This document shows, in pieces, positions 38,437 through 63,270 of a stretch of DNA of 64,000 nt (position 1 is its first letter; each line of letters begins with the position of its first letter). The notes below the pieces were generated by a model that did not search any database, was not told the origin of the DNA, and saw only the letters and a list, made by a program, of their open reading frames with translations. The position numbers were made by a program, and so were the translations under genes. Origin of the DNA: Azoarcus sp. CIB (GTDB lineage Bacteria > Pseudomonadota > Gammaproteobacteria > Burkholderiales > Rhodocyclaceae); contig NZ_CP011072.1 of the NCBI RefSeq assembly GCF_001190925.1, positions 4,960,001 to 5,024,000 on the forward strand, in the 5' to 3' direction.

Positions 38437-38589
38437 GGAGCACTACCTCCTCGCAACCGGCAACCCGGGAACCGGTCTATCTAACCGCGCGCTGGCCCCA
38501 TTGGCCGCCGATCCGACCCCGTCAACCCTGAGCACTTCCGATTGTGCGCCCGTGACGCAGCGGCCGCACTAGGGACAACCCCTCTTTGC

Positions 38590-38609
38590 TTAAGTGTTCG
38601 CACCAATTG
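38590..38609 (+). promoter_or_regulatory. Likely TdiR binding element of the bss operon
   Basis: TTAAGTGTTCGCACCAATTG is 18 of 20 identical to an element before bbsA (63251-63270, minus strand). It runs into a possible -35 (TTGGTC, 38607-38612) that is 18 bases from TTAAAT (38631-38636). A partial inverted copy (GGTGCTTAA, 38626-38634) follows. The 38437-38741 interval otherwise holds no gene. Confidence 0.7.
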
Positions 38610-38741
38610 GTCACGTTCGGCGAATGGTGCTTAAATTCAATTCACGGGGCCAGACTCGCGCTGCCGAACCTGACTCCTCCGGTGCATGATACTCGTCTGC
38701 TTCCAAAATTGTTTGGTTTGCAATGAACCGCAGAGGCTGTC

Positions 38742-39740
38742 GTGAGAATTCCTCTTGTTACCGAAATACAGAGGTTCAGCCTGCAGGACGGGCCCGGGAT
38801 CAGGACGACCATCTTCCTGAAGGGCTGCCCGCTACGTTGCCCGTGGTGCCACAACCCCGAAACCCAGGACGTGAGACAGGAGTTCTACTATTACCCGGCG
38901 CGCTGCGTCGGCTGCGGCCGCTGCATGGCCGTCTGCCCCGCGGGAACATCCCGCCTGGTGCACAACTCGGACGGCCGCACGATCGTCGAACTCGACCGCA
39001 CGGACTGTCAGCGTTGCATGCGTTGCGTCGCCGCCTGCCTGACGGACGCGCGCACCACGGTCGGGCAACGCATGAGCGTCGAGGAAATCCTGCGCGAAGC
39101 GCTGTCCGACTCCCCCTTTTACCGCAACAGCGGCGGCGGAGTCACCATCAGCGGTGGCGACCCTCTCTTCCATCCTTCGTTCACATTGGAGCTGGCGCGC
39201 AGAATCAAGGAGCGCAACGTCCACGTCGCCATCGAGACTTCCTGCTTTCCCAAGCGTTGGGAGGTTATTCAGCCGCTGCTGGAATTTGTCGATCTGTTCA
39301 TCGTCGACCTAAAATCGCTGAATCCAAAGAAACATGAAGAAGTCGTTGGTTGGCCACTTCAGCCGATACTCGACAACATCGAGCATCTCATGCGATCCAA
39401 GGCCAACATCCGCATCCATATTCCCGTGATCCCTGGATTCAATGATTCCCCCCAGGATTTCGACGACTATATTAGTTATTTGAGTCGCCATACCATGCAG
39501 CTGGAGGGTGTCGATATTCTAAATTACCACGTCTATGGAGAAGGAAAATATCGCTCCCTGGGCAGGGAAAAAGAATATCAATATTTAGGTGTGGAAGAGA
39601 ACCCGCCCGAGAAGGTAGTACCTCTTGTCAAAGGTTTGAAGCTTGCAGGCATCAAGAACGTAACGATTGGCGGTTTGGTTGGCATCACGGCGGACAAAGA
39701 CGAGACTGATCGCGATGCCGCCACAAGGTGTATTACATAA
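38742..39740 (+). CDS. bssD: Benzylsuccinate synthase activating enzyme (radical SAM)
   Basis: This 332-residue radical SAM glycyl-radical activase starts at GTG 38742 (VRIPLVTEIQRFSLQDGPG). The SAM-cluster cysteines are C29, C33 and C36 in GCPLRCPWCHNPE. A ferredoxin-like insert carries two further four-cysteine motifs, C55/C58/C61/C65 and C89/C92/C95/C99, as in other benzylsuccinate- and choline-lyase-type activases. GGGVTISGGDPLFHP binds SAM. It generates the glycyl radical on BssA under anoxic conditions. It is the first gene of the bss operon. Confidence 0.92.
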   Translation: MRIPLVTEIQRFSLQDGPGIRTTIFLKGCPLRCPWCHNPETQDVRQEFYYYPARCVGCGRCMAVCPAGTSRLVHNSDGRTIVELDRTDCQRCMRCVAACLTDARTTVGQRMSVEEILREALSDSPFYRNSGGGVTISGGDPLFHPSFTLELARRIKERNVHVAIETSCFPKRWEVIQPLLEFVDLFIVDLKSLNPKKHEEVVGWPLQPILDNIEHLMRSKANIRIHIPVIPGFNDSPQDFDDYISYLSRHTMQLEGVDILNYHVYGEGKYRSLGREKEYQYLGVEENPPEKVVPLVKGLKLAGIKNVTIGGLVGITADKDETDRDAATRCIT

Positions 39741-39758
39741 ACAATAGGAGACTCATCT

Positions 39759-39941
39759 ATGGAAACCACCACATGTAAGCAGTGCGCAAACTTCTTTCCT
39801 CTTCCCAAGGATGCCGATGATTACGAAGCCGGCAAGGCAGATTGCGTGCGCGAAAAGGAAGATGACAAAGGCAAATACTGGCTCTCCAAACCTATATTCG
39901 AGAACAGCACGCGATGTGAAGCCTTTCACGCGAAACGATAA
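39759..39941 (+). CDS. bssC: Benzylsuccinate synthase gamma subunit
   Basis: This 60-residue subunit has four cysteines (C6, C9, C29, C53) that bind a [4Fe-4S] cluster, as in characterised BssC. It is part of the (alpha-beta-gamma)2 benzylsuccinate synthase; it packs on the alpha subunit and is important for complex stability rather than for catalysis. It follows bssD by 18 bases and precedes bssA by 23. Confidence 0.93.
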   Translation: METTTCKQCANFFPLPKDADDYEAGKADCVREKEDDKGKYWLSKPIFENSTRCEAFHAKR

Positions 39942-39964
39942 AACCAAAGTTCGAGGAGACTGCC

Positions 39965-42559
39965 ATGAATGACATCGCAAGCGCCAAGGTACTGGAATAC
40001 AAGGGAAAAACGCTCAATTTCACACCTGAAGATCCGGCCGAAGCAAAGATTCCATCCGACGAGTTGCACGAGCATCTGCAAAAGCCGTCGACCGCAAGAA
40101 CCAAACGGCTGAAGGAGCGTTGCCGCTGGAAACACGCATCCGCAGGCGAGTTCATCGAAAAGAGCGTCACGGCCGGCATCGAGCGCATGCGCTATCTGAC
40201 CGAAGCACACAAGGCTAGCGAGGGTCAGCCGGAAGTCATCCGCCGCGCGCTCGGCTTGGCGAATGTTCTGAACAAGTCAACCCTGGTGCTTCAAGAGGAC
40301 GAATTCATCGTCGGCTACCACGCCGAAGATCCGAACATGTTCCCGCTGTATCCCGAATTGTCCCACATGGCGGTTCAGGACTACCTGAGGAGCGACTACT
40401 CGCCTCAACCGGCCGACGAGGCTGCCGCGATCAATGATTACTGGAAGCCGCACAGCCTGCAAAGCAAGTGCCAGCCCTACTTCGACCCGGCCGACCTCGG
40501 CCGTATGTACCAGGTCAGCAGCATGGAGGCCCCCCCCTTCGCGTCCGGTTACAACAGTATCGTACCGCCCTACGAAACCGTCCTTGAGGACGGCCTGCTG
40601 GCGCGCATCAAGCTCGCCGAGAAACATATCGCCGAAGCCCAGGCCGACATGTCCACCTTCCCGTGGAACGGCACCAAGGGCCTAGACAACATCGCCAAGA
40701 TCGACCACTGGAAGGCGATGGTCATCGCCTGCAAGGCGGTCATCAGCTGGGCGCGCCGTCAAGGCCGTCTGTGCCGGATCGTCGCCGAGAATTTTGAAAC
40801 CGATCCGAAGCGTCAGGCCGAGCTGCTCGAAGTTGCTGACATCTGCCATCGCGTTCCCGCCGAGCCCTGCAAGGGCCTCAAAGACGCGATGCAGGCGAAG
40901 TTCTTCACCTTCCTGATCTGCCACGCCATCGAGCGCTACGCGAGCGGCTACGCGCAGAAGGAAGACACCCTGCTGTGGCCGTACTACAAGGCCTCCGTCA
41001 TCGACAAAAAGTTCCAGCCGATGGACCACATGGGCGCGGTGGAACTCGTCGAGATGGAACGTTTGAAGATTTCCGAGCACGGTGCCGGCAAGTCGCGCGC
41101 CTATCGCGAAATCTTCCCGGGCTCGAACGACCTGTTCATCCTCACCGTCGGCGGCACGAACGCCAAGGGCGAGGACGCATGCAACGACATGACCGACGCC
41201 ATCCTGGAAGCGGCCAAGCGGATCCGCACTGCTGAGCCCTCCATCGTCTTCCGCTACAGCAAAAAGAGTCGCGAAAAGACGCTGCGATGGGTTTTCGAGT
41301 GCATCCGCGACGGTCTAGGCTATCCGTCGATCAAGCACGACGAGATCGGCACGGCGCAGATGAAGGAATATGCCAAATTCAGCCTCAACGGCAACGGCGC
41401 CACCGACGAGGAAGCCCACAACTGGGTCAACGTGCTGTGCATGTCGCCCGGCCTTCACGGTCGCCGCAAGACACAAAAGACCCGATCGGAAGGCGGCAGT
41501 TCGGTCTTCCCGGCCAAGGTGCTGGAAATCACGCTCAACGACGGCTACGATTGGTCGTACGCGGACATGCAGTTAGGCCCGAAGACGGGTGAACTCTCCT
41601 CGTTGAAGACCTTCGAGGACATCTGGGAGGCCTTCCGCAAGCAGTATCAATACGCGATCAACCTTGGCATCAGCACCAAGGACGTGTCGCGCTACTTCGA
41701 GCAGCGCTACCTGCAGTTACCTTTCGTGTCGGCAATCGACGACGGCTGCATGGAATTCGGCATGGACGCTTGCGCCCTGTCCGAACAACCCAACGCCTGG
41801 CACAACGAGGTCACGACGGTCGTCGCGGCGAACTCCCTCGTGGCGATCAAGAAGCTGGTGTTCGAGGAGAAGAAGTACACCCTGGAACAACTCAGCCAGG
41901 CACTGAAGGCGAACTGGGAAGGCTTCGAGGAAATGCGCGTCGACTTCAAGCGCGCGCCAAAGTGGGGCAACGACGACGAATACGCCGACAGCATCGTCTC
42001 CCGATTCTACGAGGAAGTCATCGGCGGCGAATTGCGCAAGATCACCAACTACTCTGGTGGCCCGGTCCTGCCGACCGGTCAGGCTGTCGGCCTGTACATG
42101 GAAGTGGGTTCGCGCATGGGCCCGACGCCCGACGGCCGCTTCGGCGGCGAAGCGGCTGACGACGGTGGCATTTCTCCCTACATGGGCACCGACAAGAAAG
42201 GCCCGACAGCGGTGTTGCGCTCGGTGTCCAAGGTGCAGAAGAACCAGAAGGCCAATCTGCTGAACCAGCGCTTGTCGGTACCCATCATGCGCTCCAAGCA
42301 CGGTTTCGAGATCTGGAACGCGTACATGAAGACCTGGCACGAACTGAACATCGATCATGTTCAGTTCAACGTCGTCAGCACCGACGAAATGCGCGCGGCG
42401 CAGCGCGAACCAGAGAAGCACAATGATCTCATCGTTCGCGTGTCCGGCTACAGCGCCCGGTTCGTCGACCTTCCAACCTATGGGCAGAACACCATCATTG
42501 CCCGTCAGGAACAGGACTTCAGCGCGTCCGATCTCGAATTCCTAAACGTCGAAATCTGA
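39965..42559 (+). CDS. bssA: Benzylsuccinate synthase alpha subunit (glycyl radical enzyme)
   Basis: This 864-residue glycyl radical enzyme adds the methyl group of toluene to fumarate, forming (R)-benzylsuccinate; m-xylene is also a substrate in many strains. The glycyl radical site is G828 in VRVSGYSARFVDL, and the thiyl-forming Cys is C492 in VNVLCMSPGLHG, one residue offset from the Thauera numbering (C493/G829). The length and both motifs are normal. A ribosome binding site (GAGGAG) precedes ATG 39965. It forms the catalytic core with BssB and BssC after activation by BssD. Confidence 0.95.
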   Translation: MNDIASAKVLEYKGKTLNFTPEDPAEAKIPSDELHEHLQKPSTARTKRLKERCRWKHASAGEFIEKSVTAGIERMRYLTEAHKASEGQPEVIRRALGLANVLNKSTLVLQEDEFIVGYHAEDPNMFPLYPELSHMAVQDYLRSDYSPQPADEAAAINDYWKPHSLQSKCQPYFDPADLGRMYQVSSMEAPPFASGYNSIVPPYETVLEDGLLARIKLAEKHIAEAQADMSTFPWNGTKGLDNIAKIDHWKAMVIACKAVISWARRQGRLCRIVAENFETDPKRQAELLEVADICHRVPAEPCKGLKDAMQAKFFTFLICHAIERYASGYAQKEDTLLWPYYKASVIDKKFQPMDHMGAVELVEMERLKISEHGAGKSRAYREIFPGSNDLFILTVGGTNAKGEDACNDMTDAILEAAKRIRTAEPSIVFRYSKKSREKTLRWVFECIRDGLGYPSIKHDEIGTAQMKEYAKFSLNGNGATDEEAHNWVNVLCMSPGLHGRRKTQKTRSEGGSSVFPAKVLEITLNDGYDWSYADMQLGPKTGELSSLKTFEDIWEAFRKQYQYAINLGISTKDVSRYFEQRYLQLPFVSAIDDGCMEFGMDACALSEQPNAWHNEVTTVVAANSLVAIKKLVFEEKKYTLEQLSQALKANWEGFEEMRVDFKRAPKWGNDDEYADSIVSRFYEEVIGGELRKITNYSGGPVLPTGQAVGLYMEVGSRMGPTPDGRFGGEAADDGGISPYMGTDKKGPTAVLRSVSKVQKNQKANLLNQRLSVPIMRSKHGFEIWNAYMKTWHELNIDHVQFNVVSTDEMRAAQREPEKHNDLIVRVSGYSARFVDLPTYGQNTIIARQEQDFSASDLEFLNVEI

Positions 42560-42574
42560 AAAAAGCAGCCAAAC

Positions 42575-42600
42575 GGAGGGGCAGCGTTCTGCGCCCCTCC
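42575..42600 (+). other. Stem-loop between bssA and bssB
   Basis: GGAGGGGC (42575-42582) pairs with GCCCCTCC (42593-42600) around a 10-base loop. There is no following T-run, so it is probably an mRNA stability or processing element that protects the upstream bssDCA message. Confidence 0.65.
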
Positions 42601-42635
42601 ACCCATAGTCAAACCAAATATATTGGAGCCATAAC

Positions 42636-42866
42636 ATGGAAGCGGAAAAGAGCTTGCAAAACCAGCCGTATACCGAAGTCGGCACAGCGAAGCCCTGCCG
42701 GATCTGCAAGTGGCAAACCCCTGACCCCACCGATCCGCACCGTGGGCAGTGCACCGCCAACCGCCACGCCATGGGCGGAGTCTGGAAACGCTGGCTTAGG
42801 GACGTCGAGAACACGACCTGCTCCAGGCATGAGGAAGGCAAACTGAGCTTCCGCGACCACGTCTGA
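42636..42866 (+). CDS. bssB: Benzylsuccinate synthase beta subunit
   Basis: This 76-residue subunit has four cysteines (C21, C24, C39, C62), the ligands of its [4Fe-4S] cluster. In characterised enzymes BssB covers the access path to the BssA active site and regulates its opening. It is 76 bases downstream of bssA, past a stem-loop, and precedes bssE by 47 bases. Confidence 0.93.
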   Translation: MEAEKSLQNQPYTEVGTAKPCRICKWQTPDPTDPHRGQCTANRHAMGGVWKRWLRDVENTTCSRHEEGKLSFRDHV

Positions 42867-42913
42867 ACACCGGACAGAAGTGGCTTACCTCCCGACCGCG
42901 TTGACGATAGATC

Positions 42914-43774
42914 ATGAAAACCTCTCCTAGCACAAATGGCTTGTTCATCCCGGAAGTGGACCCCTACTACTATGTAAGTACGGAAAACCAGAGCTTTCTC
43001 GATAAATTCGCCAAGATATCCAAAAAGCACCCCGTCAACGTCTTGGTGGTCGGCAAACAGGGCTGCGGCAAGTCCTCTCTGGTGCGGCAATACGCCGCCG
43101 TCAACAGGCTGCCGCTGGCGACCTTTCAGATCGGCATCCTGTCCGAGCCGGGACAATTGTTTGGTGAATACGCGCTGGAGAACGGGGAAACGCGCTACAA
43201 GCAGTTCCTCTTCCCTCAGGCCATCCAGACGCCCAACTGCGTCATCCATCTTGAGGAGATCAATCGCCCCGAACACCCGAAGGCGTTGAACATGCTGTTC
43301 TCCATCCTCTCCGATGATCGACAGGTATGGATGGACGAACTGGGCCTGCTGCAAGTGGCGCCCGGGGTCGTTTTCTTCGCGACGCTGAACGAGGGCGCCG
43401 AATTCGTCGGCACGGAGCTACTCGACCCGGCCCTGCGCGACCGCTTCTATGTCACGACCATGGATTTTCTGCCGAACGAAGTCGAAATGGAGGTGCTGGA
43501 AAAGAAGACCGGCGTAACAAACGAGCAGGCCAGGGAAATCATCACGGTGGCGAACAGCATTCGCGCCAATGCCGACCTCGGCGTCGACGTTTCCACACGC
43601 AAGATTCTGATGCTCGGCGAGATGATCGCCGCCGGAGGTACGCTGCGCGAGGCCATCGTGACGAGTCTCCAAACCGACAAGAAGACGCTCGAGTCGGTTT
43701 TGCTGTCGCTGCACGTCAATCTGGGGAAGGTGGAAAAGAGCAAGACCGAATACGTTCAGTACATTGCCGCCTAA
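42914..43774 (+). CDS. bssE: MoxR-type AAA+ ATPase BssE
   Basis: This 286-residue AAA+ ATPase has Walker A GKQGCGKS (47-54), Walker B CVIHLEEINRPE (109-120), sensor 1 GVVFFATLNEGAEFVG and an arginine finger region LLDPALRDRFYV. It belongs to the MoxR group, which usually acts with a von Willebrand A partner, here BssF. It is required for toluene growth in other strains; assembly, activation or repair of the glycyl radical enzyme is the likely role. ATG 42914 is chosen as the only start before the conserved domain. Confidence 0.9.
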   Translation: MKTSPSTNGLFIPEVDPYYYVSTENQSFLDKFAKISKKHPVNVLVVGKQGCGKSSLVRQYAAVNRLPLATFQIGILSEPGQLFGEYALENGETRYKQFLFPQAIQTPNCVIHLEEINRPEHPKALNMLFSILSDDRQVWMDELGLLQVAPGVVFFATLNEGAEFVGTELLDPALRDRFYVTTMDFLPNEVEMEVLEKKTGVTNEQAREIITVANSIRANADLGVDVSTRKILMLGEMIAAGGTLREAIVTSLQTDKKTLESVLLSLHVNLGKVEKSKTEYVQYIAA

Positions 43775-43782
43775 GGTTTTCC

Positions 43783-45525
43783 ATGGCCAAGAACAAGGAC
43801 ACCACACTTCGGCTGATGAACAGCGCGGGAGACGTCAAGCGCTTCGTCATCCCAGGTGAGGAAGGCTATTCGGACTTCTGGCGTCGCGACAAATCCCCGA
43901 TCGAGTCCGTCGAGTTGGTGAAGCTATTGGTCGCGATTCGCAAACTGTCGACCTTCATCGGACGCAACGTCGGCGAAATCGTCTGGTCGGGAATGGAACT
44001 CGACAATGCGCTCGCCCTCGATCCAACCCCGATCATGGGCACGTATCCGGTTCCGGCGGGAAAAACCGATCTGATGGTCGGCATCATGGTGCAAGAGGCG
44101 TACAAGCGTGTCGAGTGGTCAGAGCGTCTGCGCGAGATGCTCAGGCTGCGCGTCCAGCCCCCGACGCAGTACGAATACAAGTTCGACATGTTCTTCACCC
44201 TTTGCGAGTCCGTCTACGTCGACGGCCTGGCCAACAAGAGCGTGCTCGGTTACTACGCCGAGGTGGCGCGTGACTGGCGTATCGTCAAGACGCTGAAGAG
44301 CCTGATCAAGCCGCCCACCCTCTCCGAGATGTTGCACCTGTGGTGGCGCTTGGCGGCCCATCGCGACCCGGAACTCTACAAGCAGGGTCACAGCGATCTC
44401 ACCCTGGGTGGCCTGGTGATGCGGGGTAGCCTGGACCAGTATTACAGCAAGCCGATGCAGACCATGAACAGCATCGTGCCCGCCCTGCGCCACGACTGCC
44501 CGGCGCTCTCGAGCGTCAGCGATCGGCGCGATTTCCGCCTTGATCTCTATGAAAAACTCTGGTGCGAAGTGCTCAAAAACATCCGCTTCTGGCCCGGGGA
44601 TCGCAGCGATCGTTTCATGATCCCCGACATGGGCGATGATGAACTGGCCCAGGAAGAGGCGGAGCAAGCAGCAGTCAAGGCCACCATCGTCAATTACGCC
44701 AACCTGATCGAGGCGGCGCTGCCGCAGAAGAACCGCGATTTCACCGATCAGATCAAAGGGAACGTGGCAAATTTCGAGAACGTCGCCCGAGTTGAGGGCA
44801 ACGACATCGTCATGATGGCGCGCAACCGCGTCGATCGCCACCTTTTGCACAAGCTTGAGCAAGTGGTGCGGAACGCCACCGATCGCCGCAGCGTCTTCAA
44901 CCGCGGCCTCAGTTCGGGGAAGATTCATAGTCGGCGGCTTTACCGCGCCCACACCACCGGCGCAGTGTTCCAACAAAAGAATCATGAGTTCGACATGCGC
45001 AAGAATGTCGTACTGCTGGTGGACGCGACGGGGTCGATGGCCGACCCGACGCAATGGGACCAGGCGGAAATGATCTACCAGACGCTGTTCACCGCGATTC
45101 TGGAATACACTAGCAACGCGCGACTATTCGCCTACAACGATGTCAAGAACGCGTGCCGCATCACCGAGATCTATCGTGGTGGCCGCATGCTGACGGTGCT
45201 GCCGCACGGAAGGACTGCTTCCGGCGAAGCCATCATCGCCACGGCATTGAATACCCGCACGCCGGGGAAAAAAACGCTGCTGATCCACATCACCGACGGC
45301 GCCTCGAATTGGGGGTGTGGCGTGGCGGATGCCATCAAGTATTGCAAGGGCAACGGTATCAGCCTGCTCACGCTCGGCATCAGTTGCAGTCTGTCCGCAA
45401 AGCAATCGCTACGGGACGAATACGGCACTCTCGTGAAGTTCGTCGACAAGACCGAACAATTGCCGAAGTTGTTTGGCGAGTTGATCATCAGTGAAATGCG
45501 TGAATCGAGGACGCCACAGAAGTGA
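43783..45525 (+). CDS. bssF: VWA-domain protein BssF
   Basis: This 580-residue protein starts MAKNKDTTLRLMNSAG. The C-terminal part is a von Willebrand A domain with the metal-ion-dependent adhesion motif DATGSM (DxTxS in place of the usual DxSxS) at about residues 411-416 and the downstream THITDGASNWGCG region. The N-terminal 400 residues are helical and family-specific. MoxR ATPase and VWA pairs act as chaperones that insert cofactors or open complexes, so BssE/BssF probably remodel benzylsuccinate synthase. The stop overlaps the GTG start of bssG. Confidence 0.87.
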   Translation: MAKNKDTTLRLMNSAGDVKRFVIPGEEGYSDFWRRDKSPIESVELVKLLVAIRKLSTFIGRNVGEIVWSGMELDNALALDPTPIMGTYPVPAGKTDLMVGIMVQEAYKRVEWSERLREMLRLRVQPPTQYEYKFDMFFTLCESVYVDGLANKSVLGYYAEVARDWRIVKTLKSLIKPPTLSEMLHLWWRLAAHRDPELYKQGHSDLTLGGLVMRGSLDQYYSKPMQTMNSIVPALRHDCPALSSVSDRRDFRLDLYEKLWCEVLKNIRFWPGDRSDRFMIPDMGDDELAQEEAEQAAVKATIVNYANLIEAALPQKNRDFTDQIKGNVANFENVARVEGNDIVMMARNRVDRHLLHKLEQVVRNATDRRSVFNRGLSSGKIHSRRLYRAHTTGAVFQQKNHEFDMRKNVVLLVDATGSMADPTQWDQAEMIYQTLFTAILEYTSNARLFAYNDVKNACRITEIYRGGRMLTVLPHGRTASGEAIIATALNTRTPGKKTLLIHITDGASNWGCGVADAIKYCKGNGISLLTLGISCSLSAKQSLRDEYGTLVKFVDKTEQLPKLFGELIISEMRESRTPQK

Positions 45526-46094
45526 ACTCGTCCTTGCTCGACCACGTGCTGGAAGCCGAATGGCAGATGTTCGTCCGCGTCAGGAGCGCGCGGCACGCCC
45601 CCTGTCAGAGCGCTCCAGACAACTTCAAGACGATCCGCTCCAGTCTGTTCGAGACGTGGACGCAACCGATGCTCGCCTCCTATCTTGCCGATCTGGAACA
45701 GGCCGAGGCGGTCGGCCGCAACCTGCTTGCGGAAAAATACGCGCGCATGGACAACCTGATTCCACCACTGTCAAACAGCCCGTTGATCGACATCATCGTC
45801 ACGATGGAAAGCAATTGGCAGGAAGAGTTGGGACGTCGCTATCCCGCCCTTTATCGGCGATGTTGCCGCAGCATGGATGAAACCGGCGACGGCCGGAACT
45901 TCGGAATCTATCTGGGCTGCGAACTGGAAACCTACGGCGATCATACATTGCAGCTGTATTTCGAGAATATCGAGGCAGCCGTCGCCGCCAATCGCAATCT
46001 CGCGCTCGAGGCCCTGCGTCGACTGGTATGCAAGAACGGCTATCGCGACCTGGATCACGCCGAGAGCGTATTGAAATACGGAGAGACGGCATGA
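45522..46094 (+). CDS. bssG: DUF4125-type protein BssG
   Basis: This 190-residue soluble protein starts at GTG 45522 and overlaps the bssF stop by 4 bases. It contains EWQMFVRVRSARHAPCQ and TIRSSLFETW, typical of the DUF4125 family, and two adjacent cysteines in RRCCRSM. Its function is unknown. Fixed position after bssEF in toluene operons suggests a part in enzyme maturation. The end overlaps the bssH start (ATGA). Confidence 0.8.
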   Translation: MNSSLLDHVLEAEWQMFVRVRSARHAPCQSAPDNFKTIRSSLFETWTQPMLASYLADLEQAEAVGRNLLAEKYARMDNLIPPLSNSPLIDIIVTMESNWQEELGRRYPALYRRCCRSMDETGDGRNFGIYLGCELETYGDHTLQLYFENIEAAVAANRNLALEALRRLVCKNGYRDLDHAESVLKYGETA

Positions 46095-46372
46095 ACATCG
46101 ACGTCAGGCTGAATCTGCTCGGCGTATTGGGCATCAAACAAAGCGAGCTTGCCATCGATACACCGGCGAATGCCACGGTCGCCACGTTGATCAGCTTGAT
46201 CGACCAGCACAATCCCGGCTTCGCCGCGGCACTGACGAACGACAGCGGAGGCATCTCGCCCCAGTTCGTATTCTTCATCAATGGCCGAAACGCCGTACAT
46301 CTGGATGGCATGAACACCAGACTCGACGCAGGCGATGTCGTCAACGTGATTCCGGCCATTGCCGGAGGCTGA
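46091..46372 (+). CDS. bssH: Ubiquitin-like (MoaD/ThiS-type) small protein BssH
   Basis: This 93-residue protein has the length and pattern of MoaD/ThiS beta-grasp sulfur carriers: an N-terminal strand (MNIDVRLNLLGVLG), helix ATVATLISLIDQ, the FFINGRNAVHLDG hairpin, and the end DAGDVVNVIPAIAGG with a C-terminal Gly-Gly. In MoaD/ThiS the terminal Gly is adenylated and thiocarboxylated. No E1-like partner is encoded nearby. A sulfur-carrier or modifier role in making or repairing Fe-S clusters of the synthase is inferred. Confidence 0.75.
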   Translation: MNIDVRLNLLGVLGIKQSELAIDTPANATVATLISLIDQHNPGFAAALTNDSGGISPQFVFFINGRNAVHLDGMNTRLDAGDVVNVIPAIAGG

Positions 46373-46385
46373 AAGGGGGCGTCAC

Positions 46386-46910
46386 ATGATCGTCGACCGG
46401 CCGGAATCGCATTTCATCTTCGTCGTTCCTCTGGATCACGTCGAGTACCGTTACAACTACATCAACCTGCGCGGCGAACCGCTGACCAACAAGCAATATC
46501 TGGAACATTGGGGAAAATGGCTTGTGTTCGGCCTGCGCGAGGAAGTCGAGGAACTGGCAAGGAAGCTGGACCCTTATGTCGAGGAAAAGAAGATTCCCGC
46601 GGTCAAATACGACCGCAAGCTGATCACTGAATTCCAGCTCAACCGCTGCGTCATGTGTGTCTATTGCCACGATGAAACCAAGGACGAGGTTTGGGAAATC
46701 CTGGCCGCGTTGGGCGTCATGGACAAGGCATGGATGTACGAACGGGAGACGCTGGAGAAATGGCTGCCCGGCGGCGTCAATCTGGAAAAATGGATCCAGG
46801 GACGCGGGCTGGATCATGAACAAGCTGAACGCGTACGCGCCGATGCACGTGCGAAGTTCAAGAAAATGTTCGCCGACGAGAATGAAATTTTCACCGGCGT
46901 CTATCAGTAG
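46386..46910 (+). CDS. Uncharacterised protein of the bss operon
   Basis: A 174-residue soluble, charged protein (start MIVDRPESHFIFVVPLDHVEYRY) lying 13 bases after bssH, in the position called bssI in other strains. It has a CVMCVYC motif (cysteines at about 93, 96 and 99 region) that could bind metal, and a helical C-terminal half with GVNLEKWIQGRGLDHEQAERV. I do not recognise a domain. Co-transcription with the synthase and its helper genes suggests an accessory role. Confidence 0.75.
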   Translation: MIVDRPESHFIFVVPLDHVEYRYNYINLRGEPLTNKQYLEHWGKWLVFGLREEVEELARKLDPYVEEKKIPAVKYDRKLITEFQLNRCVMCVYCHDETKDEVWEILAALGVMDKAWMYERETLEKWLPGGVNLEKWIQGRGLDHEQAERVRADARAKFKKMFADENEIFTGVYQ

Positions 46911-46918
46911 TCGGAACC

Positions 46919-47518
46919 GTGTTCGGCCAAGCCATGCCCCTTCCCGCCCCCGGCCGCGAAACCGAGTGGATCGCCGCACGCGCCGAAGCCTCGCGCTACG
47001 TGCTGTCCGAACACGTGATCCGCTCGCTGATGGCCGGATCCGTCAACGGGGCGCAGATCGAAGCGGCGCTACGCACCGGCCGCATCATCGAGGAGCACAG
47101 GCACGTTGAGCGAGTCCCGGCCTACCTGCTGTGCGCCGTCCACGACGGCAAAGCGGTGCACGTGATCGCTGCACCACAGGCCGATGGCGGGCTTGTCGTC
47201 ACGCACGCCTACGTCCCGGCGCCGCCCTTGTGGCGCACCGCCTTGCATCGCTCCGAGGGGATAGCTGCAATGTCCGATCCGATCACGACCTGCTACTTCT
47301 GCGGCGGAGCCATCAAGCAGGTGACTGTCGGCAATTTCGACTACCGCCTGGAAGGACGCCTGTACGTCATCAAGAAGGTGCCCGCCGGACTGTGCCAGCA
47401 GTGCGGTGAAAAATACGTCGACGCCAAGGTCGGCCGACGGCTCGACGCACTGATCGCGCAGCAGGCCTTCACCGGCAGCGAGACCGTCGGCGTGATCGAC
47501 TTCGCGGCTGCGCTGTGA
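46919..47518 (+). CDS. DUF4258 / YgiT zinc-finger fusion protein
   Basis: The 199-residue frame from GTG 46919 joins two domains normally encoded by separate genes. Residues 10-110 look like DUF4258 (SEHVIRSLMAG then YLLCAVHDGKAVHVIAA), a RelE-fold toxin-like domain. Residues 118-199 are a YgiT/MqsA-type zinc finger with CYFCGG and CQQCGE. An internal ATG (47270, MSDPITTCYF) has GAGGGG nine bases upstream, so the zinc-finger part could also be made alone. It sits in the bss operon where bssJ is placed in relatives; a toxin-antitoxin function is not implied by the context. Confidence 0.75.
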   Translation: MFGQAMPLPAPGRETEWIAARAEASRYVLSEHVIRSLMAGSVNGAQIEAALRTGRIIEEHRHVERVPAYLLCAVHDGKAVHVIAAPQADGGLVVTHAYVPAPPLWRTALHRSEGIAAMSDPITTCYFCGGAIKQVTVGNFDYRLEGRLYVIKKVPAGLCQQCGEKYVDAKVGRRLDALIAQQAFTGSETVGVIDFAAAL

Positions 47519-48438: not shown

Positions 48439-48461
48439 GCGAGCGCCAACGGAGACCCTTC

Positions 48462-50959: not shown

Positions 50960-51027
50960 CGCCGCAAGCGCATCCGCTGCGCACGGGGCCATACGGGAAC
51001 CGCGCCGGGCAGCGGCCGCTTACGGCG

Positions 51028-54177: not shown

Positions 54178-54408
54178 GCGTTACCTTCTACGGCCGAACC
54201 CTGCCGCCGGCTGCCCGGGGTCACGTTACGAGGGGATCCGATACGCAGTTGCACTTCCCGGGCCACAATGTGCTGCGAGGCGCCGTTCCGAGGTAATGAA
54301 CGAGGGCTGGTGGTCGGACGACCCATATCGTTTGTTCGACAATTGCTCGGCCGATTGATTCCGCGGTTCCGCATACTGCGCCTCGCGCGGCCAAGGGCAC
54401 TCCCTGGC

Positions 54409-55038
54409 TCAGCCGGCGCTGCGCCGCGGATTAAGACTGTAGCGTGCGGTCAGGGACGCCTGGCCGAGGACATGCCCTTCGATCGTCCGCAGCACGTCCG
54501 GCCCGGTGAACCGCCCCTCCAGCGGACAACGATCGAAATCGACCGCGTAGAGCGTGAAGACGTAGCGGTGCACGCGCTCGTCGTTCCACGGCGGGCACGG
54601 ACCGTCGTAGCCGAAGTACAGCCCCGCCATGTGCTCGTCGCCGGCAAAGCCGCGCGTGAAGTCGTTGAGCCCGTGCCGTGCGCCGTGCCGCGCCGCGGGC
54701 CCCGGCTTTCCACGCGGCATGACGCCGTCGGAGAATTTCCCCTCGGCGACGCCGCGGTACGCGGCAGGCAGATCGACGAGCACCCAGTGGAAGAAGTCGA
54801 CGCGCGGCATCGACTCGGGAATCACGATATCGTCGCGGTTGATCTGCTCGAAACGGCTCGGCACATCCGGATCGTGGCACAGCAGCACGAAGGAACGCGT
54901 GCCGGCCGGCGGCTCGTTCCACGTGAAGGCCGGGCTGCGGTTGGCGCCGAAGCGGAAACGGCGTTCGGCGTCCACCACCGCGAAGGCGTTGCGGTCCGGC
55001 AGGCGCCGGTTGTCGCCGAAACTGCTGGTCAGACGCAT
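54409..55038 (-). CDS. PEBP/YbhB-YbcL family protein
   Basis: A 209-residue protein of the phosphatidylethanolamine-binding (Raf kinase inhibitor-like) family, with FVLLCHDPDVPS, the FFHWVLVDLPA block and FGYDGPCPPWNDE. The start at ATG 55038 follows CAGGAGA. It lies 62 bases downstream of bbsH in the same direction, and so may be cotranscribed with the bbs operon. No pathway role is known. The 231 bases between it and the hybrid kinase gene (54178-54408) hold nothing I recognise. Confidence 0.85.
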   Translation of the reverse strand: MRLTSSFGDNRRLPDRNAFAVVDAERRFRFGANRSPAFTWNEPPAGTRSFVLLCHDPDVPSRFEQINRDDIVIPESMPRVDFFHWVLVDLPAAYRGVAEGKFSDGVMPRGKPGPAARHGARHGLNDFTRGFAGDEHMAGLYFGYDGPCPPWNDERVHRYVFTLYAVDFDRCPLEGRFTGPDVLRTIEGHVLGQASLTARYSLNPRRSAG

Positions 55039-55100
55039 GGTGTGTCTCCTGCACGCGAAGCGGCCCTCGCCCGGCCGCTCCGCCATTCAGGTGATGCCTG

Positions 55101-55871
55101 TCAGGCGCCGCGGAATTCGGGCGCGCGCCGTTCGCCGAAGGCCTTGAAACCTTCCTTGCGGTCCTCGGTATCGCGCAGCACGCCCCACAGCAGGTGCGAG
55201 TACAGGATCCCATGCTCGAGCGGCATATCCAGGCCCAGCACCGCGGCTTGCTTGGTCGCCTGCACGCTCAGCGGCGCCGCGCTGGCGATCTTCTCCGCGT
55301 ACGTTCGCGCCAGGTCCGCGAGCGCCGACGGCTCGACCACGTCGCTGACAAGCCCGTAGCGCAGCGCCTCCTCCGCAGAGATCATCTCGCCCGTCAGCAG
55401 CATCTTCATCGCCACCGCCTGCGGGATCGCGCGCGGCAGCGCCTGCGTGCCGTTGAGGCCGGCGAGGCTCGCGACCTTCACTTCGGTCAGCCCGAACTTG
55501 GCATTCGACGAGGCGATCCGCATGTCGCACGCAAGCGCCATCTCGAGCCCGCCACCCACCGCGTAGCCGTTGATCGCGGCGATGATCGGCTTCCACATCT
55601 TCATGTGCGGCAGGATCGGCTGGCCCTCGCGCAGATAGGTCGCTGCCATGCACTCGGTGGGCGGCGGTGCCTTCTTCATGTCCGTGCCTGTGCAGAACGC
55701 CTTTTCGCCAGCACCGGACAACACGGCCACGCGGATGTCGGGGTCGGTACGCACGCGCGCCCAGATTTCGGCGAGATCGCAGGTCGATTCCGGGTCGAGC
55801 GAGTTCATCGCTTCCGGACGGTTCAGGGTGACGTAGGCGACGTGATTCTTTACTTCCAGCGTTACCGGCAT
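55101..55871 (-). CDS. bbsH: (E)-2-benzylidenesuccinyl-CoA (phenylitaconyl-CoA) hydratase
   Basis: This 256-residue crotonase has AGEKAFCTGTDMKKA and AINGYAVGGGLEMALACDMRIA for the oxyanion hole and FGLTEVKVASLAGLNGTQ. As BbsH it hydrates phenylitaconyl-CoA to 2-(alpha-hydroxybenzyl)succinyl-CoA in the toluene beta-oxidation pathway. Last bbs gene in order, 35 bases downstream of bbsG. Assignment rests on gene order and family. Confidence 0.87.
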   Translation of the reverse strand: MPVTLEVKNHVAYVTLNRPEAMNSLDPESTCDLAEIWARVRTDPDIRVAVLSGAGEKAFCTGTDMKKAPPPTECMAATYLREGQPILPHMKMWKPIIAAINGYAVGGGLEMALACDMRIASSNAKFGLTEVKVASLAGLNGTQALPRAIPQAVAMKMLLTGEMISAEEALRYGLVSDVVEPSALADLARTYAEKIASAAPLSVQATKQAAVLGLDMPLEHGILYSHLLWGVLRDTEDRKEGFKAFGERRAPEFRGA

Positions 55872-55906
55872 TGCTGTTCTCCTCTCTTCCTTTACTCCGG
55901 CCCGCC

Positions 55907-57127
55907 TCAGGCGGCCATGAACGGACTGTAGGTGCGGCCGTCCGCGAGCAACTTCTTAGCGATCGACATGCGATGAATTTCAGATGCGCCCTCGACGATC
56001 CGCCAGATCCGCACCATCCGCGAGACGTATTCGATGCCCAGCTCGCGCGACAATCCGAGGCCACCGTGCAACTGGATCGCGCGGTCGGCGACACGCGTGA
56101 GCATTTCGGTCGCGGCGATCTTCAGGGACGACGCCTCGATGCGCAGATCCTTGTGGCCCTGATCCGACTTCCAGGCGGTGTAGTAGAGCTGCAGCCGGAC
56201 CTGCTCGAGTTCGACGGTCGAATCGGCGATCCAGTTTTGCACCGTCTGACGCTCGGCGAGCGGCTCGCCGAAGGTCTTCCGCAGGTTCGCCTGCTCGATC
56301 ATCATCTGGATCAGCCGCTCGGCCATGCCGGTGCAGTGCGCCGCGAGTTCGATCCGCCGCACGCCGAAGCGGTTCTGCAGCGGAATGAAGGCATCGCCGA
56401 CCTCGCCCAACACTGCGTCGTCGCCGACCCGCACGTTATCGAGATAGACGGTCCAGGTCGGCATCGCGCCGATCACCGGAATCTCGGCGCCGATGCGCAG
56501 TCCCGGCGTATCCTTGTCGAGGATGAAGGCAGTCAAGCGCCGCTTGGTCGCCGCCTCCCTGTCAGTCACCGCGATGCAGATGAAGAACAGATCGTCCTTG
56601 TCGCACTTGCTGATGAAGATCTTCGACCCGTTGATGACCCACTGCCCGTCAACGCGCACCGCCGTGGTTGTGAGGCCGCTGATGTCGGAGCCCGCGCCCG
56701 GTTCGGTCGCCATCATTGCGGATTCGATCTCCCCGCGGCAGTAGCGTCGCAGGTATTTCTCACGCTGCGCCGGCGTGCCGCACTCGTCGAGGTAATAGAG
56801 GTTAGGGGCATCGGGCGGCAGCGTGAAGCCGTGATGCGAGAAACCGATCAACGACTTCGACATTTCCTCGACAACGAGGGTCTTGGCGAACATGCCGAGC
56901 CCCTGTCCACCAAGTTTCTCGTCGACCTCGATGCCCCAGAAGCCCATCTCCCTGGTCATGTTCATCAGCCGAGCATGATCGGCGGCCGGCAGCAGCGTGT
57001 ACCCGTCGGTCCACATCCGCATCTCCCGCTCCAGCAAGACCTTTTCCAGCGGCATCAGCTCGTTGGCGGTGAACCGCCGGGCCACCTCCTTGAGCATCAT
57101 CTGTTCTTCGGATAAGGAAAAATCCAT
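55907..57127 (-). CDS. bbsG: (R)-benzylsuccinyl-CoA dehydrogenase
   Basis: This 406-residue acyl-CoA dehydrogenase has [31 protein letters not shown], and [35 protein letters not shown], in which the Glu of VEGAS is at the catalytic-base position. BbsG oxidises (R)-benzylsuccinyl-CoA to (E)-phenylitaconyl-CoA and passes electrons to an electron-transfer flavoprotein. ATG 57127 has no strong competitor. It lies 52 bases after a small zinc-motif protein gene. Confidence 0.9.
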
Positions 57128-57179
57128 TTTTTCGTCTCTTGTCCTGTAGTTATCGGGGCCGATCCGTCGAACTGCTTCT

Positions 57180-57464
57180 TCATTCGGCGTCGGAGCGCAT
57201 CAAAGACTCGAACATGTCCGCGATCGACGTGCTGCCGTTGTTGCGGCATTTCTCGGCAGCGGCCTTGACGCCGTCCTCGAAAACAGCCATCAGCGCCTCG
57301 CGGATCATCGCCGAGTCGTGACAGCCGCCGACCATGAGGCAGGCCGCATAGGGGTGGTATTCGCCCATGGCCACCGTCATGCCGCACTCGGGGCACTCGT
57401 GATGCGAGATACCGGCTGGCGCGGAATTGCCGACGCTGGCTTGTCGCAGTTGTTGCTTGTACAT
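57180..57464 (-). CDS. Small conserved protein of the bbs operon, possible zinc ribbon
   Basis: A 94-residue protein with HHECPECGMTVAMGEYHPYAACLMVGGC, so C-x2-C plus two later cysteines could bind zinc, and a helical C-terminal half (ALMAVFEDGVKAAAEKCRN). It lies between bbsF and bbsG and is in the operon direction. No function is known to me; it may be an accessory factor of the CoA-transferase or dehydrogenase. Confidence 0.75.
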   Translation of the reverse strand: MYKQQLRQASVGNSAPAGISHHECPECGMTVAMGEYHPYAACLMVGGCHDSAMIREALMAVFEDGVKAAAEKCRNNGSTSIADMFESLMRSDAE

Positions 57465-57543
57465 GATTCGTCCTCCTCCTGGCTCGATCCGCGTCCGTCA
57501 CGCGACTGCCTCGACGGTCGCCCGCATCACTGGTCGTCAACAG

Positions 57544-59989
<2,446 letters not shown>

Positions 59990-60031
59990 CTCACATTTCT
60001 CCTGCCCGTCGAGGGTCGCGCGCACCCGCCG

Positions 60032-60778
60032 TCAGCCTGCGAACAGGCTTCGTCCGCCGCACACGTAGAGCACCTGGCCGGTGACGAAACCCGTCTCGTC
60101 GTCGGCGAGGAAGAGCAGCGTGTTGGCGATGTCGTCGGGATCGCCCAGCTTTCCGGTCGGCTGCCGCGACAACAGGAACTGCCGATCCTTCTCCGGCAGT
60201 TCCTCCCACATCGGCGTGTGGATCAGCCCCGGAGCAACGCAATTGACGGTGATCCCGGCGCGGCCGAGCTCGATCGCAAGCGTACGCGTCATGCCGACGA
60301 CGCCGGCCTTCGCCGACGAATACGGAGTCTGCCCCGCGCCGCCGAGCCATGCGCGGGAGGCGATGTTGACGATGCGCCCGTGCTTGTTCTCGACCATGTG
60401 GCCGTGCACCGCCTGCGAGCACAGGAAGGTGCCCTTCAGATTGACATTGAGCGTGACATCCCAGTCCGCCTCGCTAAGCTTGCGCAGCGCGCCGGCCCGC
60501 TCCATGCCCGCGTTATTCACGAGGATGTCGATGCGGCCGAAGGCATTCACCGTCTGCTGCACCATCGCGTCGACCGCCGCCTTGTCGCTAATGTCGGCGA
60601 CGGCGCCGAGCGCGCGATGTCCCTTTCGGCTGAACTCATCGACCGTCGCGTGCACCTTCTCCGCGTTGATGTCGTTGATAACGACGGCCGCACCCTGCTC
60701 GGCGAAGCGCAATGCCGTCTGCCTACCCATGCCGCTCGCCGACCCTGTGATCAGCGCGACCCTGTTGCGAATTCCCAT
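60032..60778 (-). CDS. bbsD: 2-(alpha-hydroxybenzyl)succinyl-CoA dehydrogenase, catalytic subunit BbsD
   Basis: This 248-residue SDR has an intact NAD motif TGSASGMGRQTA, the NNAG segment, and the catalytic YSSAK (Y-x-x-x-K) after a conserved Ser in NIASRAWLG. It oxidises the hydroxybenzylsuccinyl-CoA to benzoylsuccinyl-CoA. ATG 60778 (MGIRNRVAL) is 14 bases downstream of the bbsC stop. It forms a heterotetramer with BbsC. Confidence 0.9.
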   Translation of the reverse strand: MGIRNRVALITGSASGMGRQTALRFAEQGAAVVINDINAEKVHATVDEFSRKGHRALGAVADISDKAAVDAMVQQTVNAFGRIDILVNNAGMERAGALRKLSEADWDVTLNVNLKGTFLCSQAVHGHMVENKHGRIVNIASRAWLGGAGQTPYSSAKAGVVGMTRTLAIELGRAGITVNCVAPGLIHTPMWEELPEKDRQFLLSRQPTGKLGDPDDIANTLLFLADDETGFVTGQVLYVCGGRSLFAG

Positions 60779-60792
60779 TGCCGCCCCCGTGA

Positions 60793-61545
60793 TCAAATCG
60801 ACATCGAAAAGTACGCGCTCTTTCCGCCACAGACGAAAAGCGTCTGCCCGGTCACGTACTTCGAACTATCGCTCGCAAGAAAGCCGACTGCGTTGGCAAC
60901 GTCAGAGGGCCTGCCCAAGCGCTTCACGGGAATGCCGGCGGCGAGCTTTTCCCGCTCCGCCACAGGCGTCGCGTCGGTGTCGAGATCGCCCATGACGACC
61001 GTGCTCACCGTAACGCCGTCTCGCGCCGATTCGAGCGCGAGCGCCCGTGTGAGCCCGAACAGACCCGCACGCGCAGCGGCGACGTTGGCGCTCGCCGCGA
61101 GGCCGAGATAACGAATATCGCTGATATTGACCACGCGCCCGAAGCCACACTTGCGCATCAGCGGAACGACTTCGCGCAGGTAGTGGAACGGGCCCGCGAT
61201 GCCGGCGCCGAGCGCCGCGCCGACGTCCGCATCGGAAATGTCCTGCAGCGCCTTGGCGGTCAGTACGCTTTCGTTCTGCACCAAGATGTCGATCCGCCCG
61301 TAGCGCGCCATCACCTGCGCGACCGCATCGCGGATCGAACCGGGCTCGACTGCGCCCGTCACCACCGCGATCACCGCCACCCCCTTCTCGGCCAGCCGCG
61401 ATGCGAGAGCGTCGAGCCGGCCGGCGTCCGCGCCCACGAGCGCGAGTTGCACACCCGGCGCGGCGAGCCGCAGCGCAACCGCCTCGCCCACCGCATCGTC
61501 GGCATTGACGATCAGAGCCACCCTTTCTTTGCCTTTCGATTCCAT
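60793..61545 (-). CDS. bbsC: Non-catalytic SDR subunit BbsC
   Basis: A 250-residue SDR-fold protein whose catalytic and cofactor motifs are degraded: TGxxxGxG reads VNADDAVGEAVA, NNAG reads VQNES, and the YxxxK position reads NVAAAR. It is therefore a pseudoenzyme. In related strains BbsCD has been shown to be a heterotetramer with inactive BbsC subunits. ATG 61545 (MESKGKERVAL) is used. It precedes bbsD by 14 bases. Confidence 0.9.
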   Translation of the reverse strand: MESKGKERVALIVNADDAVGEAVALRLAAPGVQLALVGADAGRLDALASRLAEKGVAVIAVVTGAVEPGSIRDAVAQVMARYGRIDILVQNESVLTAKALQDISDADVGAALGAGIAGPFHYLREVVPLMRKCGFGRVVNISDIRYLGLAASANVAAARAGLFGLTRALALESARDGVTVSTVVMGDLDTDATPVAEREKLAAGIPVKRLGRPSDVANAVGFLASDSSKYVTGQTLFVCGGKSAYFSMSI

Positions 61546-61558
61546 CGCCGTCTCCCAG

Positions 61559-62728
61559 TTACCAGCCGCGCACCAGCATGTGCATCGTGCAAGCCGCGTG
61601 TTCCGTGCCAGACAGCCCGCCACCCGTAACGTGCGTCATCGCCACACGCGGCACCGGATCGACCTGATAGCCGGGACACTGGTTGCGCATCTGCTTGACG
61701 CTCGCGGCGATCTGGGCGGCCCCCGAAGCGCCGATCGGGTGACCATACGAGAGCATGCCGCCACGCGGACTGACGACACACTTGCCCCCGTGCGTCGTGT
61801 TGCCGTCGCGCAGGAACTTCAGCCCTTCGCCCTTCGGACACAGGCCGAGGCATTCGTAGTACAGCAGCTCGGCAATCGTGAAAGCGTCGTGCAGTTCGAC
61901 GATATTCACATCCTCAGGACCGATGCCCGACTCTTCATAGAGCTGCGCTGCGGTTTCCTCGGTGATGTCGTCGCCCGTTATGTCGCGCGGCCGGTTGTGG
62001 TAAGGCCCCGACCGCACGACCGAGCCCGCCACCAGAATCGGCTTGTCGATGCCCAACTTCTTCACCATCTCTTCCGAGCACACGACGACCGCCCCGGCGC
62101 CATCGGCGATGCCACAGCATTGCTGCAGCGTCAGCGGAGACGCGACGACGCGCGAATTGACGACCTCCTCGACCGAAATCTCACCCTTGAACCACGCATA
62201 CGGATTGTTGGTCGCGTGGCGGCGGTTCTTCACGGTGATCATCGCCAGATCCTCGGCCGTGGCCCCGGTCTCGTACATGTAACGCTGCGCGCGCATCGCG
62301 TACTTGCCGGTCATGACCGCGCCGTGCACCGTTTCGATATCCGACATGGCCGTTGCAAAGGCAGTGCCTTGCGCCATGTGCAGCGTGTGATTCTCGCAGC
62401 CGATGCCGATCGCGACGTCGGCAAGCCCCATCGCCACGTCCCGCACCGCCAGATGCACTGCCATACCCCCTGCGGAGCATGCGCTTTCGACTGTCATGAT
62501 TGGAAGATGTCCGCACATGCCCAGATCCTTGAGCACGGTTTGACCGATCACCATTCCGTTGGTGCCATTGCCGACGTAGGCGCTCTGCACCATCGTCGGA
62601 CGGTCGATATTCGACGCCTTCAGCGCCTCGAATGCCGCGGCACGGCCCAGCACATCGAAATCGACCTCGTGCCGCCCGAATTTCGTTTCGCCGACCCCGG
62701 CGATATAGACCTTGCGCTGCAGTTTCAT
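61559..62728 (-). CDS. bbsB: Benzoylsuccinyl-CoA thiolase, thiolase subunit BbsB
   Basis: A 389-residue thiolase of the SCP-x-like type, with nucleophilic Cys84 in [24 protein letters not shown] holding the His, and [16 protein letters not shown] at the end. It cleaves benzoylsuccinyl-CoA with CoA to benzoyl-CoA and succinyl-CoA, ending the toluene-specific path. It works together with the Zn-finger subunit BbsA encoded 20 bases upstream. Confidence 0.9.
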
Positions 62729-62748
62729 TTTCTTTCACCCACCGAGAT

Positions 62749-63183
62749 TTATGCCTTGCGGAACTTGTAGCTGATCAGCGGAACGCCGTCGCGGTTGTCG
62801 CGAACGGGCCCCACGGTCAGTTCGACCTCCTCGTCGCAGCGGAAGCTGCCGGGCTCGCCTTCCAGCTGCGCGAAAATCCGCAGGTTCTCGGGCAGATCGA
62901 TGTAGCCGAACGAATATGGCGTTTTCATTCCCGCCTGACCAATGAAATTGTCGCTGAAGCTGTAGAGCTTCCCGCGTCGGCTTAGCGGCACGACATCGAA
63001 CTCCTCGCCCCAGCAACTCGGGCACGGACTCAGCTTGGGGAAATCCAGCTGGCCGCACCCCTTGCAGCGATACCCCTTGAGATACGGCGCGCCGCCGTCC
63101 GCGGGCACCTCGAGCAGGTCCGGATGAAAGAATGTGATATCCGGCTTCTTCTCCGGTTTCTTGTTCGGCTTTTGATCTGACAT
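62749..63183 (-). CDS. bbsA: Benzoylsuccinyl-CoA thiolase, Zn-finger/OB-fold subunit BbsA
   Basis: This 144-residue protein has the DUF35 arrangement: a Zn ribbon (YRCKGCGQLDFPKLSPCPSCWG, four cysteines) followed by an OB-fold (KLYSFSDNFIG... then GYIDLPENLRIFAQLEG). In the related thiolase it is an integral part of the active complex and helps bind the acyl-CoA. It is the first gene of the bbs operon, 68 bases downstream of the shared 20-bp element. Confidence 0.9.
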   Translation of the reverse strand: MSDQKPNKKPEKKPDITFFHPDLLEVPADGGAPYLKGYRCKGCGQLDFPKLSPCPSCWGEEFDVVPLSRRGKLYSFSDNFIGQAGMKTPYSFGYIDLPENLRIFAQLEGEPGSFRCDEEVELTVGPVRDNRDGVPLISYKFRKA

Positions 63184-63224
63184 GACGCCTCCGCAGCATT
63201 TGTTTCATTTTCAACGTAGATCCA

Positions 63225-63270
63225 ATTAAACGCGCCTGGTTGCGGCGCAACAATTGGTGCGGACACCTAA
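63225..63270 (-). promoter_or_regulatory. bbs operon promoter with likely TdiR element
   Basis: Read on the minus strand, TTAGGTGTCCGCACCAATTG (63270-63251) matches the bss element at 18 of 20 bases. It runs into TTGTTG (-35, 63253-63248), 17 bases from TTTAAT (-10, 63230-63225). The same geometry occurs before bssD. Confidence 0.75.

What the first reader, a model, noticed from the sequence alone, without database searches (positions are those of the whole stretch)
38590..63270. Shared 20-bp element at bssD and bbsA promoters, probably the TdiR operator
TTAAGTGTTCGCACCAATTG (38590-38609, plus) and TTAGGTGTCCGCACCAATTG (63270-63251, minus) differ at 2 of 20 bases, lie in the same orientation to transcription, and both run into a TTGnTn -35 box 17-18 bases from a TTAAAT/TTTAAT -10. 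Two operons 25 kb apart that serve one pathway and share a two-component system would be expected to share such a site. The bss copy also has a partial inverted repeat.
Basis: partly seen in the sequence, partly recalled or inferred. Interest (0 to 1): 0.75.

Follow-up and report, generated by a model that had tools for sequence, protein, structure and literature searches.

The report
TdiR box for anaerobic toluene genes
The shared DNA element in front of two anaerobic toluene-degradation operons is real and is the already proposed landing site of the regulator TdiR; its reach seems wider than described, because the same element also sits before a neighbouring exporter-like operon and has a second, conserved half upstream.

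Summary
Observation confirmed. Both 20-mers are at the stated coordinates; the element occurs three times in the 5.26-Mb genome and in none of the controls. The operator reading is supported but in print: PMC5874301 gives the palindrome GGTGTTCGCACC at PbssD and PbbsA as the proposed TdiR site (crediting Kube 2004) and reports TdiR-dependent lacZ activity; its PbbsA primer matches this window exactly.

What I add, by inference: (1) The third copy, 6.4 kb past the window, precedes a four-gene YCF48-RND-DUF1302-DUF1329 cassette resembling the AmeABCD exporter. Exact, weaker or variant copies precede such cassettes in 14 of 15 bss-bearing genomes examined, in two gene orders; in the 15th a contig ends there. 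Close RND paralogues away from bss lack the site. The TdiR regulon probably includes this exporter. (2) The element is longer: a G+C palindrome lies 21.5 bp upstream, about two helical turns, invariant at two positions in 34 of 34 aligned sites; 0 of 2000 shuffles matched it. I read it as a second TdiR dimer site. (3) Core centre near -43.5 fits class II activation.

No binding was tested here. The handed-in finding is already known; the extension is modestly interesting.

The parts
38590..38609 (+). core element of the bssD promoter; palindrome RGTG-N4-CACC at 38593-38604
38572..38582 (+). upstream palindrome GGGACAACCCC of the bssD promoter, centre 21.5 bp from the core centre; proposed second TdiR dimer site
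   Evidence: alignment of 34 sites and shuffle test
38607..38636 (+). predicted bssD promoter: TTGGTC, 17 bp, CTTAAA (or 18 bp, TTAAAT)
   Evidence: start sites mapped in relatives per PMC5874301, positions not seen
38742..39740 (+). bssD (332 aa, GTG start), first gene of the bss operon
36799..38436 (-). tdiS (545 aa; PAS domains, HATPase_c), divergent from bssD, start 153 bp from the core element
36073..36729 (-). tdiR (218 aa; Response_reg plus GerE/LuxR-type HTH); nearest solved sequence relative is response regulator 1yio
63251..63270 (-). core element of the bbsA promoter; palindrome GGTG-TCCG-CACC at 63267-63256
63278..63288 (-). upstream palindrome GGGGGTTACCC of the bbsA promoter; proposed second TdiR dimer site
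63225..63253 (-). predicted bbsA promoter: TTGTTG, 17 bp, TTTAAT
62749..63183 (-). bbsA (144 aa), first gene of the bbs operon
63448..64000 (-). last gene (DUF1329, 439 aa, runs past the window end) of the third, exporter-like operon, whose own element lies outside the window at G000:C1:5030450-5030431

Best explanation
The element is the operator of the response regulator TdiR at sigma-70-type, activator-dependent promoters. When the kinase TdiS senses benzylsuccinate, phosphorylated TdiR binds as a dimer to the core palindrome RGTG-N4-CACC centred near -43.5, touching the -35 region, and probably as a second dimer to the upstream G+C palindrome near -65, about two helical turns away on the same face; this recruits RNA polymerase to a promoter with a TTG-type -35. 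The regulon in this genome has three target operons: bss, bbs, and a third with a YCF48-RND-DUF1302-DUF1329 cassette, probably moving toluene or a hydrophobic pathway product across the envelope. Reported by others: TdiR dependence of PbbsA and, partly, PbssD in strain CIB, and benzylsuccinate as likely inducer. Shown here: sequence, conservation, spacing, co-occurrence. Inferred: direct binding, the second dimer, control of the third operon, its exporter role, and the -43.5/-65 numbering, which assumes +1 at 7 nt after the -10.
For: Three copies only in 5.26 Mb, before bss, bbs and the third operon. In 395 family genomes I count 31 exact copies, all in 10 of the 14 BssA-bearing genomes and all before these three operon types; 7 of 7 same-genus genomes without BssA have none within 2 mismatches of the 20-mer. 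The 40 nt upstream (G+C box included) are only 23-57% identical between 13 chosen sites, so this is not simple duplication of promoters. Upstream palindrome: G-16 and C-8 in 34 of 34 rows; best 14-column information 11.24 against a shuffle maximum of 5.48, 0 of 2000 (10 sites chosen for dissimilarity). Literature. The published 356-bp PbbsA fragment, the bbsA-orfB intergenic region, ends at a primer found at 63179-63202, so it should cover the element. Regulator and site vary together: in G423 and G513, whose TdiR is 62% and 57% identical and reads HRASFLRKLG where the other TdiR rows read HRGR or HRSR, the sites are the most diverged.
Against: No footprint or shift on these bases was seen in print or done here. 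PbssD keeps some toluene response without TdiR, so another factor may use part of this region. PtdiS responds to TdiR but I found no element facing tdiS; in four genomes (G656, G682, G627 second cluster, G607) the tdiS copy followed by tdiR has no recognisable site within 500 bp upstream. The upstream box differs from the core (GGG against GGTG, odd rather than even spacing) and its best symmetry centre shifts by half a base between promoters, with as few as 2 of 7 arm pairs at the common centre. In G513 I found no bbs site and only a weak bss candidate.
Confidence: 0.85

Rival explanations
1. The core is the TdiR site, but the upstream G+C palindrome binds a different protein, for instance the unknown factor behind TdiR-independent PbssD activity or a redox or catabolite regulator.
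For: Its sequence differs from the core and its symmetry centre shifts; PMC5874301 reports TdiR-independent activation of PbssD, and catabolite and oxygen control.
Against: It occurs at all three promoter types, including bbs, reported as strictly TdiR-dependent, at a fixed distance, and is kept in the Thauera-like genomes and Herminiimonas. A global regulator's site would be expected elsewhere too; I did not scan for the upstream box alone.
Confidence: 0.35
2. The third operon carries the site because of cluster shuffling and is not functionally regulated by TdiR.
For: It is adjacent to bbs in most Aromatoleum genomes seen and the region is rearranged; the site is decayed in G693, and in G627's second cluster the RND frame is split by a stop.
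Against: Two cassettes of different gene order whose RND proteins share only 28% identity both carry it; in the Thauera-like genomes it lies beside tdiS, away from bbs; 8 of 10 aligned third sites keep a TACATT hexamer at 17 bp and 9 of 10 keep TTGTTG.
Confidence: 0.15
3. The shared 20-mer is only a strong common core promoter or a recently copied sequence and binds no specific regulator.
For: It abuts the -35 hexamer.
Against: The palindrome lies upstream of -35 and is kept nearly to the base while promoter spacers and flanks are not; absent from same-genus genomes without bss.
Confidence: 0.03

Closest known systems
Proposed TdiR operator GGTGTTCGCACC / ARGTGTYCGCACC of bss and bbs promoters (Kube 2004 as cited; PMC5874301; PMC7285207)
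   Same: Same sequence, same two promoters, same place upstream of -35; very probably the same strain as in PMC5874301 (exact primer match).
   Different: The passages and sections read mention neither the third operon's site nor the upstream palindrome; Supplementary Figure S1 was not available to me.
TodT/StyR/TmoT box ATAAACN4GTTTAT (as quoted in PMC5874301)
   Same: Response regulators of the same NarL/FixJ type; inverted arms with a 4-base spacer.
   Different: Arm sequence is unrelated (GGTG/CACC).
AmeABCD monoterpene exporter of Castellaniella defragrans (PMC6394551, passages), for the third operon
   Same: Same four components: DUF1302, DUF1329, YCF48-like (COG4447), RND transporter; sits beside a hydrocarbon pathway.
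   Different: Gene order in the window's genome is YCF48-RND-DUF1302-DUF1329; substrate unknown. A like cassette is predicted in AphR/AphS/AphT phenol regulons (PMC6449761, passages).

Membership tests
TdiR operator | palindrome matching ARGTGTYCGCACC upstream of -35 at bssD and bbsA | tested here: met
   consensus quoted
TdiR operator | tdiSR present in the genome | tested here: met
   TdiR and TdiS domains; TdiR relatives of at least 57% identity in 15 of 15 bss genomes searched (155 of 218 aa at a contig end in G534), at most 45% in the 7 without, one of which has none at E 1e-45
TdiR operator | promoter activity depends on TdiR | not testable with these tools
   reported for strain CIB in PMC5874301 (passages)
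TdiR operator | TdiR protein binds these bases | not testable with these tools
   only a gel shift of a bssD probe with extract, for another strain, is cited
TodT/StyR box | ATAAACN4GTTTAT | tested here: not met
   element read; arms are GGTG/CACC
class II activator-dependent sigma-70 promoter | operator centred about -41 to -44 and abutting the -35 (definition recalled) | tested here: inconclusive
   centre -43.5 if +1 is 7 nt after the -10; start site not mapped here
AmeABCD-like cassette (third operon) | DUF1302, DUF1329, YCF48-like and RND/MMPL genes together | tested here: met
   Pfam for G000 and G446 and G683; tblastn for G656, G682, G627 (both clusters), G693, Herminiimonas and G513. 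In G534, G607, G716 and G727 the locus held ends inside DUF1302. In G449 the long frame at the RND position matched only Usp, so an intact RND frame is not shown there
AmeABCD-like cassette (third operon) | exports a hydrophobic substrate | not testable with these tools
   deletion effect known to me only for C. defragrans

The most novel reading that the evidence does not exclude
TdiR controls a three-operon regulon through a bipartite operator, two dimer boxes about two helical turns apart, and the third operon is a dedicated envelope exporter that has been recruited at least twice (two gene orders, RND proteins 28% identical) into the benzylsuccinate-sensing circuit. At the tdiS-bssD divergent promoter the same two boxes may serve both directions with swapped roles: if CACAAT is the tdiS -10, the G+C box sits near -43 and the core near -64.5 for tdiS.
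Probability: 0.4. Interest if true: 0.5.

Novelty: already known. Interest (0 to 1): 0.37.

Why it matters
Anaerobic toluene degraders help clean contaminated aquifers, and how they couple toluene breakdown to surviving toluene is open. A TdiR-controlled exporter would tie the two together and would give four genes listed as of unknown function a testable role. A more precise, bipartite operator would also give a better search model for benzylsuccinate-sensing promoters and for toluene biosensors.

Tried and rejected
Looked for more regulon members in this genome with a looser pattern: six further hits at 1-2 mismatches against 3 for the reversed control; treated as chance and not followed up. 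Looked for a separate site for PtdiS: none recognisable upstream of the tdiR-linked tdiS in four genomes. Considered the extra palindrome ACCAATTGGT in most bss copies: absent from the 51758, Herminiimonas and Thauera-like bss copies, so taken as incidental. A mirror-image PtdiS model fits the window's genome, but its CACAAT block is not at the matching place in the Thauera-like sequence (worked out by hand), and its -35 would be poor, so it is kept only as speculation. The first TdiR alignment had minus-strand genes misread; it was redone, whose printout lacks its head.

Dropped rows: G399/G727 and the first G627 cluster (near-identical to G000 at these sites) and bbs of 51758 (one base of sequence upstream in its contig) were left out of the alignment. 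The shuffle test used 10 of 33 sites, chosen for dissimilarity. G513's second BssA copy (contig C2) was not examined. The BssA search over the order saw 399 genomes and found only the window's own.

Limits: organism names of G genomes are not given by the tools. G399-G406 are named through their L loci, and I equate them with G727, G607, G534, G716, G656, G423, G693 by equal contigs and places. 'EbN1' for G446 rests on recalled replicon size and 'Thauera' for G449/G683 on recall and gene order.

Full report
Observation. The two 20-mers are exactly where stated and differ at two bases. Allowing three mismatches, the genome of 5,257,030 bp holds three copies and the reversed control none. The third, identical to the bbs copy, is at G000:C1:5030450-5030431, about 6.4 kb past the window end.

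Known part. The operator idea is in print. Passages of PMC5874301 (sections 14 and 18 read in full) name the palindrome GGTGTTCGCACC as the proposed TdiR site upstream of the -35 of PbssD and PbbsA, crediting Kube et al. 2004 (not read). In that work PbbsA::lacZ showed no activity in a tdiR mutant, PbssD was reduced but still toluene-responsive, and PtdiS lost its more than twofold induction. The PbbsA primer printed there matches the window at 63179-63202, so the tested 356-bp intergenic fragment should cover the bbs element, and the window is very probably from that strain or one almost identical. PMC7285207 (passages) reports ARGTGTYCGCACC upstream of bssD and bbsA in Magnetospirillum 15-1.

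Distribution. BssA was found in 14 of 395 family genomes. The 20-mer at up to two mismatches was found in 13 of 395, 36 places in all: 12 are BssA genomes, and one (G550, two mismatches) is not. The BssA genomes missed are G423 and G513. I count 31 exact copies, in 10 genomes, and each lies before bssD (10), bbsA (11) or the third operon (10). Of the other five places, three are bssD sites at 1-2 mismatches (G534, G449, G683) and two (G550 and one in G627) are not at these operons. Seven same-genus genomes without BssA have no match to the 20-mer within two mismatches; with the shorter 17-mer five of the seven have two-mismatch hits, and the reversed control has hits in four of the seven. The reversed control gave 9 hits by my count.

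Third operon. In G000 it is YCF48-like (326 aa), MMPL/RND (808), DUF1302 (681), DUF1329 (439), the orfE-B set that PMC5874301 lists as of unknown function. Eight further Aromatoleum genomes have the same order as far as the loci reach: exact sites in seven, and in the eighth, G693, a decayed site (17-column score 9.0 against 7.7 for the best false hit in the window) at the right place. In G627's second cluster the RND frame is split by a stop. In G446 an exact site precedes DUF1302-DUF1329-YCF48-RND, whose RND is only 28% identical. In G449 and G683 weaker sites (20-column scores 17.6 and 12.2; best false score in the window 5.0) precede the same DUF1302-first order, divergent from tdiS; an intact RND frame was confirmed in G683 only. 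In Herminiimonas an exact copy of the 17-mer precedes the G000 order. In G513 a variant site (20.7) precedes the G000 order. In G423 a variant (14.0) points into a contig end. So 14 of 15 bss genomes show cassette plus site of varying quality. RND paralogues 60-72% identical lie elsewhere in 7 of the 10 bss-bearing genomes of the genus and in 3 of the 7 without bss, and no exact site lies outside the three operon types. PMC6394551 (passages) describes the like cassette AmeABCD as a monoterpene exporter; PMC6449761 (passages) predicts such a cassette in phenol regulons. The listings of searches held no paper that I recognised as linking it to TdiR; most were not opened, and most subscription papers are not held.

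Second box. Anchoring 33 sites plus one from G449 at the core shows conserved columns -17 to -4: mostly GGG, then five variable columns, CYC or CCC, then often TA. G at -16 and C at -8 are in 34 of 34; the full GGG at -17 to -15 is not in all rows. With 10 mutually dissimilar sites the best 14-column window scored 11.24; 2000 shuffles reached at most 5.48. Its centre is 21.5 bp from the core centre, about two helical turns. I infer a second TdiR dimer site; a different protein is not excluded.

Promoter. TTG follows the core in 34 of 34 rows; with a 17-bp spacer the next hexamer is A+T-rich and ends in T in 31 of 34. If +1 lies 7 nt after the -10, the core centre is at -43.5 and the upstream box at -65: a class II position with a helper site. 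Start sites mapped in relatives are cited in PMC5874301 but their positions were not seen.

Regulator. TdiR has a receiver and a LuxR-type HTH; by sequence its nearest solved relative is response regulator 1yio (recalled as StyR). Relatives of at least 57% identity are in 15 of 15 bss genomes searched, and none above 45% in the 7 without. The HTH end differs most in G423 and G513, the two genomes with the most diverged sites.

Verdict. Real, functional-looking and already proposed; the extension to a third operon (my confidence about 0.8) and a bipartite operator (about 0.55) is new as far as my searches show.

Noticed in passing
G656 (L207, L208), G682 (L209, L210), G627 second cluster (L211, L104), G607 (L212, L213): Two near-identical copies of tdiS (95.8-99.2% over about 1.65-1.70 kb) flank the bss-bbs-exporter cluster in the same direction; only one of each pair is followed by an intact tdiR. 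Recombination between them could excise the cluster as a circle whose junction has the bssD-tdiS-tdiR order seen in the window.
   Followed up: partly
G627:C1, about 1.61-1.65 Mb and 4.71-4.74 Mb: One genome carries two toluene clusters with six exact elements; one cluster is nearly identical to the window's at the genes compared.
   Followed up: partly
L171 and L172: In the two Thauera-like genomes an ETF (electron transfer flavoprotein) gene follows the exporter-like cassette (Pfam in L171; a like frame in L172).
   Followed up: no
window 38538-38549: A block CCGATTGTGCGC upstream of the bssD element is exact in 7 of 9 Aromatoleum tdiS-bssD gaps checked, one base off in LuFRes1 and partial in G446; possibly part of the tdiS promoter.
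   Followed up: partly
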